A stretch of DNA of 64,000 bases from Phorcus lineatus (taxonomy: Eukaryota > Mollusca > Gastropoda > Trochida > Trochidae), in assembly GCA_921293015.1 (NCBI GenBank), contig OV121086.1, forward strand, positions 33,851,194 to 33,915,193. Reading direction: 5' to 3'. Both the position numbers and the translations under genes were made by a program. A model generated the notes under the pieces. It saw nothing but the letters and a program-made list of their open reading frames with translations. It was not told the DNA's origin and did no database searches. Below, piece after piece: positions 4,341 through 53,370 of this stretch (positions within the stretch are counted from its first letter, which is position 1; every line of letters begins with the position of its first letter).

Positions 4341-5039
4341 ACACCAATATCAAATGAGAGAGTGTGCTGAACGTTAAATAGGAAACTATAGAAGATTCAT
4401 CTGAATACCAGAGGTGCTAGATTGCTGTCAGCGCAGTAACCAGCAAACAGACTTGGTCTTATTGATGCTTTAGATTAGTTTTCAGTTTCAACTTCGAAAT
4501 ATTGACTTGCAGTTCTATATACATGAACACATAAAATAGAATCGATAAATTTGCTGTCTGATTTGTATACACGTCTTCTGAATGTGACAAGCCTGAGAAT
4601 GATAACTTGGTAAAATTTGAATGGAACCCTACCTTATTGTATTACTTACGGTATTTTCGTTACTGTGAAATCCACTTGATATCGTTATACACAATCACAG
4701 CTTTATTAAACAGCTTTAATTAATTTGTTTAGGTTTATAGGTTCTACTTCATATGACAATGTCACGCTATTAAGGGAACACTGTCGCTTTGCTTGTAAGA
4801 AAAGGGAATCAAGCATAGACAGAAAGAGAGAGGCTTTATTCACTCATGAACTATAGAACTTTAATTGATTTCATTGAAATTGTACAATCATGTGGAATTC
4901 ATAACGTGAATTTTTACGTAGTATTTTGAGAAGCAGATGAGATCTTTTTGCTGTCATTTCTAAACCTCATTTGCAGAGAAAAGTTAAAATCTTTATATTT
5001 GAGTCCATTTTATTTCTGATATATAAAGAGACTTACATT
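4341..5039. other. AT-rich unique DNA, nothing recognised
   Basis: No open frame, repeat or structured RNA was recognised here. Confidence 0.5.
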
Positions 5040-5240
5040 TAGTCCCTGAAAAAAAGATTTCCCCAAAAAATTTGTTTTCAAAACATTTGGTATGAAAAAA
5101 TATTTTAAAAAAGGAGTCCTGTACAATACTTAATTTCAGGCTATGGCGGAGGCAACTAAACGTGTTAAAATTTTCTAGGCTTAAGAAGGCTCCTTTAATA
5201 TTTTGCCATAGCGTCTGGATGACAGACTAAAAGAGTTCTT
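5040..5240 (+). repeat. Dispersed repeat, copy 1 (partner at 53082-53260)
   Basis: This segment aligns by eye, in the same orientation, with 53082-53260 along most of its length. Both share AAGATTTC, GGTATGAAA, the block AAAGGAGTCCTGTACAATA, TTAATTTCAGGCT, then AGGCTCCTTTAATATTTTG and GATGACAGACTAA. The AAAGGAG and CTCCTTT blocks are inverted relative to each other and could form a stem. The second copy lies inside a decayed tandem array (52000-53370), so this copy is probably a member that moved or was left behind. Confidence 0.75.
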
Positions 5241-17665: not shown

Positions 17666-20600
17666 AAACATTTCACATTCCAAACCTTTTTTAGAGAAAA
17701 ACATACAATGAAACATAGTGACGCATCCTAATTAGATTTAATTTCTTGAAAAAAACATCTACATGAATTTCTTTTATCCTAAATGAAGAAATATTTGAAT
17801 TCGAACCTAAAATTTAACTCCTGTAGATTTTCAAAGGCAGTAGCACGTATTTAAACAAATTGATCTTGAGAAAACAAAAATAAATGTTATCAATTGCAAG
17901 GCAATCTTTTTTTAATTAAAAGTAGTACTTCTCTAAAGAACGTCACATGTTCAGTTGAGGTACACGAATCCATTTCCTTATCTTAAATGATTTAAAGGTG
18001 TTCACACTAAAATGGCCGCATCGTGTTCGCTTGAAACCTGAAACTTGTTCTACGTCAACGGATTATCAGGTTGAATAGTTAGGTGTTTCGCCCTGTGATG
18101 ATAGTACATTTGGTATAAAAATAAATTAACTGAGGGGATCTTGAAGAACAACTATCTCCTCAGGTCTTAAACAATGTAACACGATATTAAGTTGTCACAT
18201 ATATTGCTGATATACCTCAAGTATGATTTTAAACCTTTAATAGAAACGAGTTCAAAACATGAAATATTTTTACGAATATATTTTTCAAAAACCTTTATAA
18301 ATACAATGTTCCATATGACTTCCCTACTTTATCCGGATTACTTGAAAACTGAATTGCACTTATAAACGGACGTCACATGTGGCTGGCTGTATACTACACA
18401 GAGCCCGGTAAGCAAAGCACTTTGTTACGCTCTATGCTTACAGTATTTTATCGACCGGTATTCTCTTCAGAAAAGTTATCTAAGGGTGACCATATGCTCG
18501 GATTTGAGCCTCCTTAATAAGAAAATAATCTTTATTTAACACAAGGCAACTTTTCTGTCACCAATACAAGGTACAAGAGACCAAGTCACATTTGTTAAAT
18601 TAACTGAACCACAAGAACTCGAACTCTTGTTATTTGTGAACTAGCATATTGCTTTTGAATTATGCTATGATATCTTATGGTAGTTATCTTAAGTTTTCAA
18701 AATTCTAACATATTTCATACTTCGAAACTACATACAAAAATTCGTATAGGATTTTAAATTTTGAATGATAAAGCTTTTATAATGTTTGTGTTAGGTTGTT
18801 AAATTTAATCTTATAAAACTATCATAATGCTTGGAAATGATGGCGTAAACACACCTGGAGCATATATTCGGTTTTGTTTTGACATCATATAAACTAAATA
18901 CTGTTTTAGAATTTCAAGCATACGAGGGATCGAATTATTATTTTTTGCGATATTGATCAACTCATATAAATATCGTGTTGCTTTTAGATGATGCTATAAT
19001 CTATGACAGCTCCTTTGCCTCAACTTTCTAAATATATAATTAATAATAAATCGGAACATTATAATCCATTTTTTTAAGTTTATAATCAATGCTAAAAACC
19101 ATTTTCTGACATCGGAAGTTCTATATTCACAACAGAAGATATCTGGGCAATGACTGTTGACATCGGTATGGCATCACCTGCTAGCCATTTTCAACTTTCT
19201 TTACCAACACGGGGAACAAAAAAGACAAAAATTCACTTTAAAAACTTTTAGAACTTTCAGGTTTAATAAACAAGCATTTTTCTGGTACTTAATACCATTT
19301 AGAAAAATGTAGGTCGATGTTGATCTTTTTACGTTTATACACTTTAAAGGGGGATTAGTTTTTTAAAAAATATTTATGTCTTAAAATTCTCCCCAATAAA
19401 CATTAGTTTGTGTTATCTTCAGAGGGTCAAAACATCTTAATACTTAATCCGATCATACGTAGTCATTAAGGAAATAATTAACTATGAAAGAAAAACAACT
19501 TGTGGCCATTTTTGTGTGAACACTTTTCAATCATTTGAGGTAGGGAAAGAGATCCACATAGCCAAACAGATCATGTACGTTTGTTTTAAGAGTGCTTCTT
19601 TTGATTAAAAAACATTGGCTTGCAATAGGAAACATTTATTTTCGTTTTCGTGAAATCACTTAATTTATTGTTAAAAAACTACTACCGCCCCTTTAAAGAA
19701 TTACAAATACTCCTGCCTAAATAGATCTAATGATTTAAATGATGCTATAACATTCAATAAACATGTCGACTTTTATCACGTTTTTGCTACATTTATGAAT
19801 TTGAAGTAAAACACGGTAACTTGTATTTTGTCCTGTGGACGTTGCCTAGCAAAATTTACTTTTGATGTTGCCTTGAAAAATTTAAGGATGTATGCCATTT
19901 TAAAATTATCATTATACGTTTTAAGGTGTAAACTGTCTGAAACATTTGACTTAGTAATGAATATGAGCAGTACTTTTTAATAAGTTCATATTCTTTCAAA
20001 CTTTCTTCTCCTTTCTCCTTTTTACATCAGAAAGAAACATTATACAGACAAACCTTCTTATGTCACAATTAAAAAGAGCAATATAGCTATACGTAAAAAA
20101 ATATGTAAACTTTTTTTTTAATCATTGGGGTATTTTATAAGAGTCTTCATACGTGGCTAGTAAAATGTTCCTTCCTACAAAACAGTTCGTCTGGACTTTT
20201 TTTTTTTAATTAAGAAAAATGAACTCCACTAAAGAACAATCCAACAATGTTGATCAGACATCCGACAAAAAACTTCCATCAAAGTTTTTCGATACAAGGA
20301 TACAAACTTGCATGTACATTCAAAACGTAGACGTCTCCAATGTCATAATACTCAATGAAAAGATTTTTCATTCAAGTACTTAAATAAAAGGATACAATTT
20401 GCATGTACATTTCAAACGTGGGCTGGTGGTGTGTTGAATTACGTCGAGTGCAGCGTATTGTTAGAAGCACGGGTCTGCGTAATGATACGTTATATTTACA
20501 TTTCAGTAAACACGACAAGTGGATAATTATCGAATTATAATCGTCAAGGGAAACTTTGTGCGTGGTACTACCTGGTTTTGCTTACACTGGAATGTTTTGG

Positions 20601-21101
20601 TTCTCGAGGATGTCCAAATCAAAAAAGTTTGACATTTTGTGCCTTAATTAATGAGATGAATGAAGACATAATATTGTTTAAGCTGAAAGTTATCTTATTT
20701 GTAAAGTATTAGAGAGGAACTTGAAATAGACATAAAAGTCGATAAAAAATGAATTCTGATCATAAAAAGGACTCAAATCTGTGAAATATGAAATCCGAAA
20801 TCCGATAGTTGCAAAATGCTCAACTTACATTTTGGCTCTTGATTGTAACATCAAACATATTGAAATGGTAACACGAATAAGAGACTCAAGAAAGAAATAA
20901 GATATGATCATCTATAAAACTCATCATATCTTTACTGATCTAATAAAATTGTTGATAAAGTAGATAAGGTTTGGCACTGATAGTAGATATGTAGCAATCT
21001 AATCCCCTTAAAATCAAAATCTAGCATCAATTAGAATGTATTTCCCTTATCGTCATTATGCATTATCCGATTCGTTCATAGTGTCAGAAGTCCTAATCGA
21101 A
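17666..21101. other. AT-rich unique DNA, no gene seen
   Basis: About 3.4 kb with frequent stops, homopolymer T and A runs, and no coding signature, inverted element or tandem repeat that I could recognise. Confidence 0.6.
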
Positions 21102-24100
21102 TTTTCACCATGTTCTACTCAGCATTCATCGGTGATTCATTTTTCACCATGCACTACTCAGCATTCATCGGTGATTCATTTTTCACCATGCACTACTCAG
21201 CATTCATCAGTGATTCATTTTTCACCATGCACTACTCGGTATTCATCAGTGATTCATTTTTCTCAATGCACTACTCAGCATTCATCGGTGATTCATTTTT
21301 CACCATGCACTACTCAGCATTCATCGGTGATTCATTTTTCACCATGCACTACTCAGCATTCATCGATCGGTGATTCATTTTTCTCAATGCACTACTCGGT
21401 ATTCATCAGTGATTCATTTTTCTCAATGCACTACTCAGCATTCATCGGTGATTCATTTTTCACCATGCACTACTCAGCATTCATCGGTGATTCATTTTTC
21501 ACCATGCACTACTCGGTATTCATCAGTGATTCATTTTTCACCATGCACTACTCAGCATTCATCGGTGATTCATTTTTCACCATGCACTACTCGGTATTCA
21601 TCAGTGATTCATTTTTCACCATGCACTACTCAGCATTCATCAGTGATTCATTTTTCACCATGCACTACTCAGCATTCATCGGTGATTCATTTTTCACCAT
21701 GCACTACTCAGCATTCATCAGTGATTCATTTTTCACCATGCACTACTCAGCATTCATCGGTGATTCATTTTTCACCATGCACTACTCGGCATTCATCAGT
21801 GATTCATTTTTCACCATGCACTACTCAGCATTCATCGGTGATTCATTTTTCACCATGCACTACTCAGCATTCATCAGTGATTCATTTTTCACCATGCACT
21901 ACTCAGCATTCATCGGTGATTCATTTTTCACCATGCACTACTCAGCATTCATCAGTGATTCATTTTTCACCATGCACTACTCAGCATTCATCAGTGATTC
22001 ATTTTTCACCATGCACTACTCAGCATTCATCGGTGATTCATTTTTCACCATGCACTACTCAGCATTCATCGGTGATTCATTTTTCACCATGCACTACTCA
22101 GCATTCATCGATCGGTGATTCATTTTTCTCAATGCACTACTCGGTATTCATCAGTGATTCATTTTTCTCAATGCACTACTCAGCATTCATCGGTGATTCA
22201 TTTTTCACCATGCACTACTCGGTATTCATCAGTGATTCATTTTTCTCAATGCACTACTCAGCATTCATCGGTGATTCATTTTTCACCATGCACTACTCGG
22301 TATTCATCAGTGATTCATTTTTCTCAATGCACTACTCAGCATTCATCGGTGATTCATTTTTCACCATGCACTACTCAGCATTCATCAGTGATTCATTTTT
22401 CACCATGCACTACTCAGCATTCATCAGTGATTCATTTTTCACCATGCAGTTCTCAGCATTCATCAGTGATTCATTTTTCACCATGCACTACTCAGCATTC
22501 ATCGATCGGTGATTCATTTTTCTCAATGCACTACTCGGTATTCATCAGTGATTCATTTTTCTCAATGCACTACTCAGCATTCATCGGTGATTCATTTTTC
22601 ACCATGCACTACTCGGTATTCATCAGTGATTCATTTTTCTCAATGCACTACTCAGCATTCATCGGTGATTCATTTTTCACCATGCACTACTCAGCATTCA
22701 TCGATCGGTGATTCATTTTTCTCAATGCACTACTCGGTATTCATCAGTGATTCATTTTTCACCATGCACTACTCAGCATTCATCAGTGATTCATTTTTCA
22801 CCATGCACTACTCAGCATTCATCGGTGATTCATTTTTCACCATGCACTACTCAGCATTCATCAGTGATTCATTTTTCACCATGCACTACTCAGCATTCAT
22901 CAGTGATTCATTTTTCACCATGCACTACTCAGCATTCATCGGTGATTCATTTTTCACCATGCACTACTCAGCATTCATCGGTGATTCATTTTTCACCATG
23001 CACTACTCAGCATTCATCGGTGATTCATTTTTCACCATGCACTACTCGGTATTCATCAGTGATTCATTTTTCTCAATGCACTACTCAGCATTCATCGGTG
23101 ATTCATTTTTCACCATGCACTACTCGGTATTCATCAGTGATTCATTTTTCTCCATGCACTACTCAGCATTCATCGGTGATTCATTTTTCACCATGCACTA
23201 CTCAGCATTCATCGGTGATTCATTTTTCACCATGCACTACTCAGCATTCATCGGTGATTCATTTTTCACCATGCACTACTCGGTATTCATCAGTGATTCA
23301 TTTTTCACCATGCACTACTCAGCATTCATCGGTGATTCATTTTTCACCATGCACTACTCAGCATTCATCAGTGATTCATTTTTCACCATGCACTACTCAG
23401 CATTCATCAGTGATTCATTTTTCACCATGCAGTACTCAGCATTCATCAGTGATTCATTTTTCACCATGCACTACTCAGCATTCATCAGTGATTCATTTTT
23501 CACCATGCACTACTCAGCATTCATCGGTGATTCATTTTTCACCATGCACTACTCAGCATTCATCGGTGATTCATTTTTCACCATGCACTACTCAGCATTC
23601 ATCGATCGGTGATTCATTTTTCTCAATGCACTACTCGGTATTCATCAGTGATTCATTTTTCTCAATGCACTACTCAGCATTCATCGGTGATTCATTTTTC
23701 ACCATGCACTACTCAGCATTCATCAGTGATTCATTTTTCACCATGCACTACTCAGCATTCATCGGTGATTCATTTTTCACCATGCACTACTCAGCATTCA
23801 TCGGTGATTCATTTTTCACCATGCACTACTCAGCATTCATCAGTGATTCATTTTTCACCATGCACTACTCAGCATTCATCAGTGATTCATTTTTCACCAT
23901 GCAGTACTCAGCATTCATCGGTGATTCATATTTCACCATGCACTACTCAGCATTCATCAGTGATTCATTTTTCACCATGCACTACTCAGCATTCATCAGT
24001 GATTCATTTTTCACCATGCACTACTCAGCATTCATCAGTGATTCATTTTTCACCATGCACTACTCAGCATTCATCAGTGATTCATTTTTCACCATGCAGT

Positions 24101-24198
24101 ACTCAGCATTCATCGGTGATTCATTTTTCACCATGCACTACTCGGTATTCATCAGTGATTCATTTTTCTCAATGCACTACTCAGCATTCATCAGTGAT
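21102..24198. repeat. 39-bp satellite, about 79 units, with five 4-bp phase shifts
   Basis: The unit is 39 bp and, read in one frame, encodes the 13 residues DSFFTMHYSAFIG. Units differ at a few diagnostic positions (GGTGATT/CAGTGATT, CACCATG/CTCAATG, CAGCATTC/CGGTATTC). Five units carry an extra ATCG, giving CATCGATCGG at 21361, 22106, 22500, 22699 and 23600. The distances are 745, 394, 199 and 901, which equal 19, 10, 5 and 23 whole units plus 4 each. Thus spacing is perfect except for the insertions. All five marked units are followed by the same variant unit, showing that blocks were amplified together. Since 39 is divisible by 3, two plus-strand frames stay open for up to 520 codons, but the insertions shift frame and there is no conserved start, so I do not call it a gene. 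Confidence 0.97.
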
Positions 24199-24572
24199 CA
24201 ACAGATGATTATGACACATGGAAGAAATCGTATTTTAAAATCTCAATGCACAATGTTCAAAAAGCAGTAACTCTTCATATGTCCATCAATTAGTATTCCA
24301 TCGTCCTTCAAGACTACACGTGATTTGTCAGAAGTGTTGTATCGTGTTCCAAAAGAGTTTTCTGGCGGAGTTAGTATAACCATTTGGCTTGATTGATGAT
24401 CAAGATGTCTGTTTTTAGAAAATAAATATATCGTTTAAATCAAAGGATTTTGTAAAATCTCAAAAGAGAAGTAGAAGAAACCAAGAAACCAGGATCAATT
24501 AGTTATTCACCCCTCGTAACTGACAGTGATGTGATGGTAGGGGTAAGAAAACTCTTGAAGTGTTCTCGCTAG
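24199..24572. other. Unique flank of the satellite
   Basis: Sequence diverges from the repeat after TCAGTGAT at 24198. Nothing recognised. Confidence 0.5.
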
Positions 24573-24682
24573 CAGGTGAAGTGTGTGGGGAAGAGGGTGG
24601 AGAAAGTTTCCTGAACAGGTGATCAGTTTACACCTGTATGGAAGTAGACGTTACCTGAATATACCTGCTTCATACTCAGGTG
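24573..24682. promoter_or_regulatory. Cluster of six CAGGTG/CAGGTA E-box-type sites
   Basis: CAGGTG or CACCTG at 24573, 24616, 24631 and 24677, and TACCTG at 24652 and 24662, all within 110 bp. CAGGTG is bound by Snail, Zeb and bHLH factors in animals. The same motif is clustered at 30145-30535, 42020-42086 and 47939-48150. It could be an enhancer or a shared repeat. Confidence 0.4.
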
Positions 24683-24998
24683 AGAAGGGGGGAGCACTTT
24701 CCTCCCCCCTCCTGCTCATTCTATGTAAAGATCATCTCGGATTAAGAGAGCTAGGTAAATGCCAGCCCCACTCTGTCGCTTAAAAGTGTGACTCCAAATA
24801 AAGAATTCTCTGACACCTAATTAGTGTTTGATCAACCAGGCGACCTTTAGTAAGAGAGGGGGGATCGTTGACAGTCTCTTGATTTTTTTAGATCCGGATT
24901 GGAAGCTCTGTAACTATCCTGCCAAATATTTGCATCGTCTGGTGGGAGGGAGGGGAGAACAAGGTTGTGGGGATTCATTTTGGACCAAGGCTGGAGGG

Positions 24999-25013
24999 TG
25001 ACGTCACTTCCGG
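24999..25013. promoter_or_regulatory. Fused CRE/ETS site
   Basis: TGACGTCACTTCCGG combines a perfect CRE with an ETS site sharing its edge, a composite known from animal promoters. It sits at the end of a G-rich, less AT-rich stretch (24570-25030). Confidence 0.5.
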
Positions 25014-26867
25014 TTTATCAGGACGTGACAGAGGACGGGTAGTCTTGCTTCATGACTGTCTCTGGAATATGAACTTTTGCTAAAGTCTTCCTTCGGCAAG
25101 TCAAGACTTTACAAATTAGCAATAAAAAATAAGCATTTGAAAATATCGCCTTATTTTTCAGACAAGTATCAGAATAATTAAAGTCCAAAAATATGTAAAC
25201 TTTTAACATCACTGCACGAATTTATAGATTTAACAGGCAGATTTGCAAAATCAAGCATGTAATATTTAATGAATAATCCGTTGTATGTAAAATATTTAAT
25301 ATACTACCAAGTATACACATATCGATAAGAAGCACATAAAATATGAAAAGTGAGCCACCGGTCGTGCAAGTCATGTCTTTCAATATCAAATCTATCAGTT
25401 GTTTCTGTACAAGTACGAAAAGGGCAGAATGATTCAACGGTAATCTACACATTTGAAATCAAATGCAAGGTCCTGAATAACGAATATACAAAATTTATAA
25501 TAAAACATATGTAATGCAATTGACATTTTATATGACAGCAGTGTGAATAAGCTTTCTTTTACTTATATCTAATAATCTATAAAATTCAACTTATACCTCC
25601 TTTCGTTTACGATAAGATACGAGTCAGGATAAAGGATACTAGTTGTGATACAACAAATGGTTAGCTGCATAAAAGCTAAAAATGTTACAGGGAGTATTTA
25701 CTCCGAATTTATTTCATTTTGTCTGTTTTCAGGTTGTTAAATCTGAAAAAAATGTAATCGTAGGCCTTTTATGTACAAACTCATTAGATATTATACACGA
25801 ATGTATATACGAACTTTGCAACTTGCTTACCATTTTATATGCACGGAATTTATATGTACATATTCTCCTGATAATTAACATGGAATAACCACTATCTTTA
25901 TTATTATTAAGGTCAATAGTTAGAAAAAATGTGTGTGATAAATAGTTTCAAAATTTTCCTTTTTTTCATTACAACTCATTTCATCTGTCGCAAATATAGA
26001 CATAATGGATATATCCTAAACCCAAAAAAAACTCGCGCGTCGGACTCCACATTGCTAAGTGAGACATATTCTTTACAATTCGCTACGATCTTTCTCGGGT
26101 AGGTATGCGCGATCACGATCGCAGTAAATAGCGGTTAATATGGCCTCCTCACGGAGCCCTCATACCTGGTCGAAAGGTGAGAATAGGTGTTGCAAACCGA
26201 GACTTGTATCAAAGGTAGTGTCTGGGCTCTCTAGACTTGATATGTTTTTTATAAATTAAAAAAGACATTAAGTATGTTTCAGAGTTTCGCATGGTCTTAG
26301 ATATATACCTAGCCAAAATAAAATTTGTCCTCCGTAATGTTCAAATGATATCGGTGAACTATCATTTTTATCCATTAAATGCCAATATGACTTGTTTAAA
26401 TTGATAACCCATAAACGGCTAAATAAATCTTAAGACGTCGAAATTCTACGTCCCGTTTACACTTGAAGACTAGTTATGCGATTTACCAAACACTATCAAC
26501 CCTTAGTGTTTATGTGTAAACTTTAAATAAGTTTCCAAAATTACGTTTTAGTCATTAGAGCGTGCCATTTTCCCGTTTTCGATCACAATTCACTATTAAT
26601 TTACACTGTACTGAACTGGTAGGCATTAACATGATAATGTTTGCAATGCATTTTATTATCAATATGACAAGGTTCTAAAATACTGCTTTTAAAATTCAAA
26701 GTATAAAAGCATTTAATTCGTCTATAAGATACATTGTGTAGGCACGTATTCACTAATACAATAAATAAAAGCGTTCACATGTTACGTTTTTAATCCATTA
26801 TAAAAGATCTCTGATTGTATTTACTAACGTTACAAATTTTCAAAAGATTGATTAAAATTTAATTAAA
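25014..26867. other. AT-rich DNA, no gene seen
   Basis: A small GC-richer patch with CpGs lies at about 26030-26240. No open frame with signature and no repeat recognised. Confidence 0.55.
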
Positions 26868-27060
26868 GGTAAGGTGAATTTGGGTTTAACGCCGTTTTCA
26901 AAAGTATTTCACTTGTATAACGGCTTATAGTATTAAAGCAGGGAGAAAGCCCGAAACACCACTGTGGCTTATGCAATGCGGTGAAAACTGCGGGCATCGA
27001 CTGGAACTAGCGAACCACAGGTGGTACTGCGCTGAAATTCAGTGTAGCAATGCATTCCCT
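26868..27060 (-). mobile_element. Truncated SINE copy lacking the tRNA-like head
   Basis: Closely follows the left two-thirds of the SINE at 27535-27861: GTTTAACGCCGTTTTCAA, CAGGGAGAAAGCCC, GTGGTACTGCGCTGAA and CAGTGTAGCA occur in the same order. It stops before the tRNA-related part, as expected of a 5'-truncated retroposed copy in minus orientation. No target duplication found. Confidence 0.85.
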
Positions 27061-27534: not shown

Positions 27535-27861
27535 GTGAGGTGAGGTGAGTTGGTGTTTAACGCCGCTTTCAAGATTACTTCACTTATATCACGGCTGCTA
27601 GTATTATTGCAGGGAGAAAGCCCCCAACACAATTGTGGCTATGCATTGCGGTGAAACCTGCGAGCATCGGCTGGAACTAGCAAACCATGGGTGGTACTGC
27701 GCTGAATTTCAGTGTAGCATTGCACCCAAACCTGACTGCGTGTAGAACAGTTCTCTACTGCAGACAAAGTTGCCGAGCCCCTGGCGGGATTCGAACCACG
27801 GACCTTCTGATCCGAAGCCGAACGCGCTAACCACTGCGCTATCCAGCCCTATCCCCCCCCC
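27535..27861 (-). mobile_element. Complete tRNA-derived SINE with 11-bp target duplication
   Basis: Read on the minus strand, the right end has a tRNA-like head: box A in TAGCGCAGTGGTTAGCGC, an anticodon-arm-like CTTCGGATCAGAAG and box B GGTTCGAATCC; the arm resembles tRNA-Arg with anticodon TCG. A body of about 200 bp follows, then a tail of CTCACC repeats. The flanks are identical, CCTACATTAAG at 27524-27534 and 27862-27872, so this is a target-site duplication and the insertion is intact. A run of C (G on the element strand) lies between the head and the duplication. Mobilised by a partner LINE; transcription by Pol III from the internal boxes is known for the class. Confidence 0.93.
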
Positions 27862-27872
27862 CCTACATTAAG

Positions 27873-28614
27873 AAAACAACAATAAAATTGTATAAACATA
27901 CATCAAGTATGTTTTAGGATATATTTAAGACAACAAGATGTTTTTCTTCAAAAATGAAAGACAACAAACAAGATAATAACATCATAATTGAATCACCTAC
28001 ATTTTCAGTAAATAGACTATAGGAGGCACAACCGGAGAAACTTCACGTTCATGTATTTCCGATATCACAATTCAAATTGCGTTTGGCAATTGCGTTTTTG
28101 CAAACATAGCTGTATTTGCACATTTTCACTAATTTACCAGATTACATATAAATGAGTCTTCGGCAAATCACGGAGTCTACGCTAGATAACTGGAGGTTAA
28201 AGCAAATAAATAGGCTCTCCCGGTTTACGGTAACTTTTCCTCATCTTCTATTCACGGCCGATCGCTCCAAAGCTAACAATTGGTGGTGTACGCCATAAAA
28301 TGCAAAACAGGCAGGCCCTAATGCATCGATATTGTTTTAGGACTCTGATTTATTTAGTGTTCGCGGGTGGCATATCCGAACCAGATATGTAGCAAGTTTT
28401 TTGGGAAGGAAATTAGCAGACGACAGCTGGAAAGAAGCAACATCAACCAATGATTATTTTCATTTAAGATTTGCTCTTCAAATGTGCAGAAAATATGTTC
28501 TCATGTTTCATTTTGATGTGAGCAAAACAGACACGTATCGAAAGGTTGTTTTTAAAAAATCATCCGACGTGTCTCTGTTTTTGTTTTGGAAAGCCAGACT
28601 TCACTCTCTTCGAA
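27873..28614. other. AT-rich DNA leading to a promoter-like site
   Basis: Less AT-rich after about 28150. An 81-codon open frame (28401-28646) shows no family signature and is left uncalled. Confidence 0.4.
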
Positions 28615-28618
28615 TGAC

Positions 28619-28658
28619 ACAATATGGCGGATCTCGTTCTCTCTGAAGTCTCGCGGGA
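28619..28658. promoter_or_regulatory. YY1-type site and TCTCGCGGGA motif
   Basis: CAATATGGCGGA (28620-28631) and TCTCGCGGGA (28649-28658, one mismatch from the TCTCGCGAGA promoter element) are 17 bp apart. Both are typical of TATA-less promoters, and their close pairing makes a promoter plausible. Confidence 0.4.
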
Positions 28659-35449: not shown

Positions 35450-35905
35450 AAACTTTCATATAAAACTTAGGCTACATATAAAATAAAACCTTCGAGGAGG
35501 TTATCATGGGGAAAAGCTATCAAACAGAACTTTCATATAAGACTTAGGCTACATATAAAATAAAACCTTCGAGGAAGTTATCATGGGGAAAAGCTATCAA
35601 ACAGAACTTTCATTTAGACTTAGGCTACATATAGAATAAAACCTTCGAGGAGGTTCTCATGGGGAAGAGCTATCAAACAGAACTTTCATTTAGACTTAGG
35701 CTACATATAAAATAAAACCTTCGAGGAGGTTATCATGGGGAAAAGCTATCAAACAGAACTTTCATTTAGACTTAGGCTACATATAGAATAAAACCTTCGA
35801 GGAGGTTATCATGGGGAAGAGCTATCAAACAGAACTTTCATTTAGACTTAGGCTACATATAAAATAAAACCTTCGAGGAGGTTGTCATGGGGAAGAGCTA
35901 TCAAA
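35450..35905. repeat. 76-bp tandem repeat, six copies
   Basis: The marker AGGCTACATATA occurs at 35469, 35546, 35622, 35698, 35774 and 35850, giving periods of 77, 76, 76, 76 and 76. Copies are nearly identical; the first two carry CATATAA(A/G)ACT where the later four have CATTTAGACT. Each unit contains AACCTTCGAGGAGGTT, which can form a short hairpin. Confidence 0.95.
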
Positions 35906-42379: not shown

Positions 42380-43320
<941 letters not shown>

Positions 43321-49780: not shown

Positions 49781-50563
49781 GCATTGATCTCAACACCATC
49801 AAAATTGTTAACATATGATGCATTGATCTTAACACCATCCAAAATGTTAACATATGATGTATTGGTCGAAACACCACACAAATTGTTAATATATGATGCA
49901 TTGGTCTAAACACCACCCAAAATGTTAACATATGATGTATTGGTCTAAACACCATCCAAAATATTAACATATGTTGTATTGGTCTAAACATCACCCAAAT
50001 CGTTAATATATGATGCATTGGTCTCACCACCATCCAAATTGTTAACATATGATGCAGTGGTCTAAACATCACCCTTAATTGTTAACATATGTTGCATTGG
50101 TCTAAACACCACCCAAATTGTTAACATATGATGCATTGGTCTAAACACCACCTAACTTGTTAACATATGATGCAATGGTCTCAACACCACCCAAATTGTA
50201 AATATATATTGCATTGGTCTAAACACATTCCAAATTGTTAACATATGATGCATTGGTCTAAACATCACCCTTAATTGTTAACATATGATGCATTGGTCTA
50301 AACACTACCCAAACTGTTAACATATGTTGTATGCATTGGTCTAAACACCATCCAAATTGTTAACATATGATGCATTGGTCTAAACACCATCCAAATTGTT
50401 AACATATGATGCATTGGTGTAAACACCACCCAAATTGTTAACATATGTTGAATGCATTGGTATAAACACCATCCAAATTGTTAACATATGATACAATGGT
50501 TTAAACACCACCTTAATTGTTAACATATGATGCATTTTTATAAGCACCATCCAAATTGTTAAC
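49781..50563. repeat. Second 39-bp satellite, about 20 units
   Basis: The unit, seen as TTAACATATGATGCATTGG then TCTAAACACCACCCAAATTG, repeats every 39 bp (for example 49811, 49850, 49889). Small insertions occur, such as TTGTATGCATTGG and TTGAATGCATTGG. Copies are more diverged than in the 21102-24198 array, and I see no sequence similarity between the two units. A 110-codon minus-strand frame (49740-50072) encodes PMHHILTIWVVFR-type repeats; it is a by-product of the 13-codon period. Confidence 0.95.
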
Positions 50564-51999: not shown

Positions 52000-53370
52000 T
52001 CAAAAATAGATTTTCACATTTTGGTGTATAGGTAGACACATACTCATGAACTTGATATACAGCGTCTTCAAAGAAGATAACAAGAACAAATTTTAGACTT
52101 CCAATCAAAGACGTTCAAAGAAGTAATTGTACATCAAGGAAATAGCCATAGTATGTCATAAATGTTCTTATGAGTGTACGCCTCTCGTGATTGGTGTACA
52201 GTCTAGAGATGGTTGTCATTAAAGATAGCTGGCGTCAAAACAAAGGGTCCGTGCTTATTATCAAATCGTTCTCGAGGACAATCTAAAGGTCAACATTGCA
52301 CCAAAACCCGTGATTCTGTGTAGATTCTAGGCTTTTTGTAAACAAAATTGTTCTTGAACCAGTCGTAAAGCCAAAATTGTGCCCAATTTAAGACTCTGGT
52401 GTCACTGGTACACACTCCAGCAGCCACGTGTCTAAATGAGGTCAATATTTCAGCGGATTTTGATTGAGTTAGACGGTGCAACGTCTCTTATTTGACGAAA
52501 AAAGTGTAGACACTATAAGAAATTGTCAAACGTTCTTGAAGATATTCTAGTGCCCAACATTACGTTCAACGTGACCATCTTGTAAGAGTTGAATAGAATC
52601 CAGAAAGCAAATGCCTTTCTATTAGTAAGATGTCACTGAGATACAGTTGGGTGTCATTTGTGAAAAGTGAAAATTACAAATATTTCTTGAAGACAGTCTT
52701 ATGGACAAAACTGGCCAAGGGCCTACATGTCAGTGTTGTTTCATGACTATGTGTAAAATAGGAGCCCTTGTTGCAGTCTAGGTCCTCATTCAGCAATCAA
52801 AATTAGAAAAAACGTTAAACTACGTGTTTTAATATCCCATAGACTAAATTTGTTTCACCTTGAAGTCCAAAACATTTTAAAGCTAAATGTGACTGGTATA
52901 GATTATAGAAGATGCGGGTGTCATTTATCCTAACAAAATACAAAACGTTCGTATTTGCAGTCAGGCTACGGGCCTACATGAAATCTAAAATAACAACAGA
53001 TCTTCATCGTAAATCCTTGTTGAAGACAGTTAAGAGTCAAACATTGGGCCATACACAAGAGGCTAGACTAACGTGTCGTCGCTGAAAAAAGATTTCACTA
53101 AAAATGTATTGTTCAATATTTGGTATGAAATAATACAAAAAAAGGAGTCCTGTACAATATTTAATTTCAGGCTGAGGCAACTAGACTTGCCAACATTTTC
53201 TAGACTTAAGAAGGCTCCTTTAATATTTTGCTATAGGGTCTAGATGACAGACTAACAAGAGGCCTGCATACATAAGGGCCTACATGATATCTAAATACCA
53301 AAAGATTTTCTCTAAGCTCAGAGTGACTGGTAGAGAGTCTAGAGGCCGGGTGTCATTAACTAATGTAGGG
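52000..53370. repeat. Decayed tandem array, unit roughly 200-250 bp
   Basis: A recurrent block like GACTGGTA...TCTAGAG..GGGTGTCATT occurs near 52190, 52393, 52640, 52890 and 53319, that is, at steps of about 203, 247, 250 and 429 (twice 215). Further recurring words are GAAGACAGT, GGGCCTACATGA, GGTCAACATTG and AGGCTAGACTAA. Members of the family also occur singly at 5040-5240, 13724-13775 and 46070-46115. No coding frame. Confidence 0.7.
53082..53260 (+). repeat. Dispersed repeat, copy 2 (partner at 5040-5240)
   Basis: See the shared blocks described for 5040-5240; this copy forms part of the decayed array. Confidence 0.75.

What the first reader, a model, noticed from the sequence alone, without database searches (positions are those of the whole stretch)
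21102..24198. 39-bp satellite whose phase is shifted by five identical 4-bp insertions
Marker positions 21361, 22106, 22500, 22699 and 23600 give spacings of 19, 10, 5 and 23 units plus exactly 4 bases each, so unit length is invariant over 3.1 kb apart from one repeated ATCG duplication. Every marked unit is followed by the same variant unit (CTCAATG with CGGTATTC), and four of five by the same second unit. This is a higher-order structure: a marked block was copied to several places in the array, most simply by unequal exchange or replication slippage over long tracts.
Basis: seen in the sequence. Interest (0 to 1): 0.72.

Follow-up and report, generated by a model that had tools for sequence, protein, structure and literature searches.

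The report
Single-locus 39-bp minisatellite with marked units
A 3.1-kb run of 79 copies of a 39-base sequence, found at one place in its genome, holds five copies of one small mutation that evidently arose once and was then copied about within the run, which is ordinary behaviour for repeats of this kind.

Summary
Window 21102-24198 is a 39-bp tandem array of 79 units. Of 78 unit spacings, 73 are 39 bp and 5 are 43 bp; the five long units carry one ATCG duplication (ATCGATCGG at 21362, 22107, 22501, 22700, 23601). Each is followed by unit type F, which occurs nowhere else (5 of 5); 4 of 5 F units are followed by D. None of 34 unmarked units with the same site is followed by F. So the duplication most likely arose once and was copied.

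It is not a satellite: a 21-base core with up to 2 mismatches occurs 79 times in the 958-Mb assembly, all here; the left 1102 bp and the right 986 bp of flank match only themselves. No regular higher-order period was seen. Allele association is lost beyond two units, and toy simulations favour copying a few units per event (medians 3.8 and 3.6), so "long tracts" is not supported. Conversion and unequal exchange cannot be told apart from one allele. No frame is open through the array. Best reading: an ordinary non-coding single-locus minisatellite with interspersed variant repeats.

The parts
21102..24198 (+). 39-bp minisatellite array, 79 units
   Evidence: TRF, unit map; only locus in the assembly
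21338..21458 (+). marked block 1: units E-F-D (units 7-9), ATCG duplication at 21362
22083..22203 (+). marked block 2: units E-F-D (26-28), duplication at 22107
22477..22597 (+). marked block 3: units E-F-D (36-38), duplication at 22501
22676..22757 (+). marked block 4: units E-F (41-42), duplication at 22700; followed by B, not D
23577..23697 (+). marked block 5: units E-F-D (64-66), duplication at 23601
20000..21101 (.). left flank, unique in the assembly
   Evidence: one match, itself; abrupt edge
24199..25184 (.). right flank, unique in the assembly; a dispersed 67-bp piece follows at 25185-25251
   Evidence: abrupt edge

Best explanation
A non-coding single-locus minisatellite (79 x 39 bp, about 39% G+C) in otherwise unique DNA. 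Shown: an identical 4-bp duplication of ATCG sits in five units, each followed by the otherwise absent type F, so the pair most simply arose once and was copied. Shown: unit variants are interspersed, and alleles are associated over at most about two units. Inferred: the array turns over by repeated copying, gain and loss of small groups of units (a few units, of the order of 150 bp per event) after out-of-register pairing of sister chromatids or alleles, through conversion-like repair (synthesis-dependent strand annealing) and/or small unequal exchanges. No host function is needed to explain it.
For: Unit map with one length variant; E-F linkage 5 of 5 against 0 of 34; longer shared tracts around markers than around unmarked sites; association at lags 1 and 2 only; simulated mean copy size 3.8 units (5-95% 1.7-12.3) and 3.6 units (1.3-12.9); 79 of 79 genome matches in this array, 0 in the reversed-pattern control; flanks unique; no open frame through the array.
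Against: One allele from one assembly; no reads and no other individual. The toy models assume a steady state and 4 or 6 variable sites a unit. The mechanism is not resolved: leans to dispersed copying (137 of 300 accepted; tandem 61; mixed 102), one search does not (88; 104; 108). Repeats of 4 or more units are not in excess over doublet shuffles.
Confidence: 0.82

Rival explanations
1. The array grew mainly by unequal exchange or slippage over multi-unit blocks.
For: Pure tandem models with about 5 units a step reach the observed statistics (accepted 61 of 300, 104 of 300; median step 5.7 and 5.3 units). Markers 3 and 4 are 5 units apart with EFDCD between them and EF after.
Against: In the grid pure tandem models with means of 8 to 20 units leave more long sharing than seen (0.00 of runs at or below the observed four-unit ratio) and those with means of 1 to 2 units too many identical neighbours.
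Confidence: 0.3
2. The ATCG duplication arose several times at a slippage-prone spot.
For: It is a simple tandem duplication of four bases, and unit A can fold into a hairpin next to it.
Against: 5 of 5 marked units are followed by F, 0 of 34 unmarked units with the same site are; shared tracts on both sides are long.
Confidence: 0.03
3. Assembly artefact: array length or unit order is wrong.
For: Tandem arrays are prone to mis-assembly (general knowledge); no reads are held here.
Against: The array lies inside a 58.7-Mb contig of a 74-contig, 957.8-Mb assembly, so probably made from long reads that span 3.1 kb (inference). No second copy or leftover monomer turned up.
Confidence: 0.07
4. The array encodes a repetitive protein.
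For: 39 is a multiple of 3 and two plus-strand frames of the bare unit lack stops; stop-to-stop frames reach 533 aa; one frame passes the Pfam cut-off of PCF11_RFEG_rpt (45.7 against 43 bits).
Against: Each ATCG duplication shifts the frame; the real array has 26, 11 and 42 stops in the plus frames and 163, 126 and 124 in the minus frames. The other Pfam matches of that frame are below their cut-offs and name unrelated families (Lysostaphin_N, MAX_effector), as repetitive sequence does.
Confidence: 0.02

Closest known systems
Human Y-chromosomal minisatellite MSY1 (DYF155S1)
   Same: A+T-rich single locus of similar copy number (48-118 units), hairpin-capable unit, turnover in small steps of 1-3 units with synthesis-dependent strand annealing proposed (PMC2599865: introduction read, other passages seen).
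   Different: MSY1 is 25 bp, 75% A+T, with variants in blocks and no units of other length; here 39 bp, about 61% A+T, interspersed variants and a 43-bp variant.
Autosomal human minisatellites such as MS32 and CEB1
   Same: Highly interspersed variant repeats; strand asymmetry here (GC skew about -0.37 on the + strand). Interspersion at autosomal loci is stated in PMC2599865.
   Different: Those are G+C-rich with measured germline instability; here 39% G+C and instability not measured. Strand asymmetry as a minisatellite trait is recalled.
Sugar-beet minisatellite families (BvMSat)
   Same: Low G+C, short units (PMC2820488, passages).
   Different: Mostly seen on all 18 chromosomes by FISH; here one locus.

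Membership tests
Minisatellite | Tandem units of about 10-100 bp | tested here: met
   39 bp, 79 units; definition as in PMC2897807 and PMC2599865 passages
Minisatellite | Array of about 0.5 kb to several kb | tested here: met
   3.1 kb; range as in PMC2820488 passage
Hypervariable minisatellite | Length and structure differ between individuals | not testable with these tools
   one assembly only
Satellite DNA | Abundant, long arrays at several or many loci | tested here: not met
   79 of 79 core matches lie in this 3.1-kb array
Higher-order repeat array | Regular multimeric period with copies more alike than neighbouring monomers | tested here: not met
   irregular marker spacings; no association at lags 3-11, p 0.023 at lag 12 among 12 lags
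Array carried by a dispersed mobile element | Flanks next to the array repeated in the genome | tested here: not met
   left 1102 bp and right 986 bp match only themselves; the tool skips very common words, so a caveat remains
Protein-coding repeat | One frame open through the array | tested here: not met
   11 to 163 stops in the six frames

The most novel reading that the evidence does not exclude
The locus is a hypervariable minisatellite whose germline turnover runs through short conversion tracts, helped by the hairpin that unit A can form, and whose 4-bp length variant works as a natural tag that records each copying event.
Probability: 0.2. Interest if true: 0.35.

Novelty: new member of a known kind. 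Interest (0 to 1): 0.15.

Why it matters
As a sequence it is an ordinary minisatellite. Its modest value is practical: five copies of one linked indel tag copying events inside an array at a single locus with unique flanks, so repeat turnover could be followed allele by allele. The duplication makes ATCGAT sites that occur inside the array only at the five markers, which gives an easy typing handle.

Tried and rejected
Hairpin kept by selection: unit A folds better than its shuffles (-4.8 kcal/mol, z -3.25, 3 of 200 as good; 0 of 300 over all rotations) and E fairly so (z -2.01, 8 of 200), but B, C, D and F do not stand out (39, 109, 37 and 80 of 300 as good). Over 12 of the 14 unit types (E and N left out) no pair of 9 has a change on both sides, and 7 of the 12 break one pair. 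The fold is thus not kept by the variants; a role in mutation is speculation.

Kinship with the second 39-bp array (49781-50563): at best 17 of 39 identical, shuffles average 17.06, 1258 of 2000 as good. Rejected.

Relatives elsewhere: no match in plasmids or phages. Four viral contigs hold an 18-base piece once each; TRF on all four shows no 39-bp array; taken as chance. A full-text search for the same 18 bases gave 0 papers; this covers only the open-licence library, and sequences in supplements or databases are not covered. Other paper searches were for context; papers not named in Closest known systems or the full report were seen in listings only.

Blocks longer than neighbour preference: not shown. 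Pfam: 10 of the 40 long frames were scanned; 8 had no match, the array frame is discussed under rivals, and one (28341-28643) has a match below cut-off to Cytochrom_C1 (E 0.026). The organism was not identified. A first simulation script failed and was corrected.

Full report
OBSERVATION. The array at 21102-24198 is real: TRF reports period 39, 78.9 copies, 93% matches. Cut at a fixed anchor it has 79 units. Of the 78 spacings, 73 are 39 bp and 5 are 43 bp. The five long units (type E) are identical and contain ATCGATCGG, a tandem duplication of ATCG, at 21362, 22107, 22501, 22700 and 23601. The last unit (N) runs into the flank, so its length was not measured.

UNIT MAP. The order is GABCDAEFDACACBABAHABABBAAEFDCDCDBBIEFDCDEFBABBAAACDCJAACABBKBAAEFDBAABBLBBBBMCN. 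A and B occur 21 times each, C 10, D 9, E 5, F 5, and eight types once. The common differences are ACC/TCA (columns 4 and 6), AGC/GGT (columns 18 and 20) and G/A (column 28), plus the duplication and a rarer G at column 12. F follows E in 5 of 5 cases and occurs nowhere else; D follows F in 4 of 5.

IDENTITY BY DESCENT. Of 39 units with the CGG site the five marked ones are followed by F and none of the 34 others is. Pairs of marked units share on average 67.1 bp exactly to the left of the marker start and 101.6 bp to the right (marker included); random sets of five unmarked sites reach the left value in a fraction 0.0066 and the right value in 0 of 5000. Total shared tracts for the 10 pairs are 96 to 282 bp. 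One origin followed by copying is well supported; five independent duplications are not.

HOW FAR COPYING REACHES. Mutual information between variable sites is above permuted order at lag 1 (z 12.7) and lag 2 (z 3.2), not at lags 3 to 11; lag 12 gives p 0.023, not notable among 12 lags. Five repeated strings of four or more unit types exist, the longest of six. A plain shuffle gives fewer (mean 1.9; 96 of 2000 reach five), but a shuffle that keeps neighbours gives at least as many in 1894 of 2000. The evidence for shared blocks is therefore local. In a grid of toy simulations (7680 runs, 1253 in the diversity range) tandem slippage of one or two units makes too many identical neighbours, and mean copy sizes of 12 to 20 units leave too much long sharing in both modes. 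Approximate Bayesian fits (150,000 runs each; the 300 nearest of 44,770 and of 55,659 in the diversity range) give a mean copy size of 3.8 units (5-95% 1.7-12.3, new allele at each mutation) and 3.6 units (1.3-12.9, two-allele sites). They disagree on mode: accepted tandem, mixed, dispersed 61, 102, 137, 88. The mechanism is not settled by one allele.

All 16 units with T at column 4 directly follow a C, F or E unit; none of 34 unmarked CGG units is followed by D, F or N. Of 15 GGT units 10 are followed by D, F or N. The linked stretch straddles the unit boundary (about 28 bp). Likewise the four units with G at column 12 (units 35, 60, 72, 77) each follow two B units.

GENOME CONTEXT. The window lies in an assembly of 957.8 Mb in 74 contigs, on C11 (58.7 Mb) at about 33.87 Mb. 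A 78-base query matched only here (34 of 34 matches). The 21-base core with up to two mismatches occurs 79 times, all 79 here, 0 on the other strand, 0 in the reversed-pattern control. The left flank (1102 bp) matches only itself. The right flank matches only itself for its first 986 bp; then a 67-bp piece (25185-25251) is dispersed (39 further places listed; 40 of 176 candidates were scored). The edges are abrupt: the 39-mers next to the array match the unit at 12 (left) and 12 (right) of 39 positions. The tool warns that it skips very common words.

CODING AND RNA. No frame is open through the array (plus frames 26, 11, 42 stops; minus 163, 126, 124). Long partial frames (up to 533 aa) follow from 39 being a multiple of 3 with two stop-free plus frames in the bare unit. 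One partial frame passes the Pfam cut-off of PCF11_RFEG_rpt (45.7 against 43) and is below that of Lysostaphin_N (54.1 against 60) and MAX_effector (20.3 against 27); I read these as matches of repetitive sequence. Rfam at gathering thresholds gave no match in the window, ARAGORN no tRNA.

STRUCTURE. Unit A can form a hairpin beyond chance; B, C, D and F do not, and 12 of 14 unit types show no compensatory change. The plus strand of the array is poor in G against C (GC skew -0.36 to -0.38 in the three full kilobases; -0.11 to +0.06 in the seven others of 18-28 kb). G+C is 39-40% there.

KNOWN KINDS. The closest described locus I saw is MSY1 (PMC2599865; introduction read, other passages seen): A+T-rich, hairpin-capable units, 48-118 copies, steps of 1-3 units, strand annealing proposed. 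It differs in having variants in blocks and no length variants; the same introduction calls autosomal loci highly interspersed. PMC2897807 (passages) lists slippage, unequal exchange and conversion as potential routes. A+T-rich minisatellites are known in sugar beet (PMC2820488, passages). Abrupt edges are described for mollusc satellite arrays (PMC5139131, outline and abstract). Nothing here requires a new mechanism.

VERDICT. Observation confirmed; interpretation partly supported; an ordinary single-locus minisatellite, a new member of a known kind.

Noticed in passing
49781-50563: A second 39-bp tandem array (19.8 copies, 84% matches), unrelated in sequence; a two-unit query matches only here in the assembly (10 of 10 matches).
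   Followed up: partly
35451-35905: 76-bp tandem array, 6.0 copies, 96% matches.
   Followed up: no
42390-43315: Long AGAGAC-type simple-repeat stretch with a 114-bp longer period.
   Followed up: no
22438-22476, 23421-23459, 23893-23931, 24088-24126: Four units of the main array share G at column 12 and each follows two B units: a second, weaker marked set.
   Followed up: partly
25185-25251: 67-bp piece of a dispersed repeat; 39 further places listed at 91-96% identity, 40 of 176 candidates scored.
   Followed up: no
5029-5235 and 53065-53261; 26867-27054 and 27538-27724: Pairs of similar stretches in the window, 82% and 85% identical.
   Followed up: no
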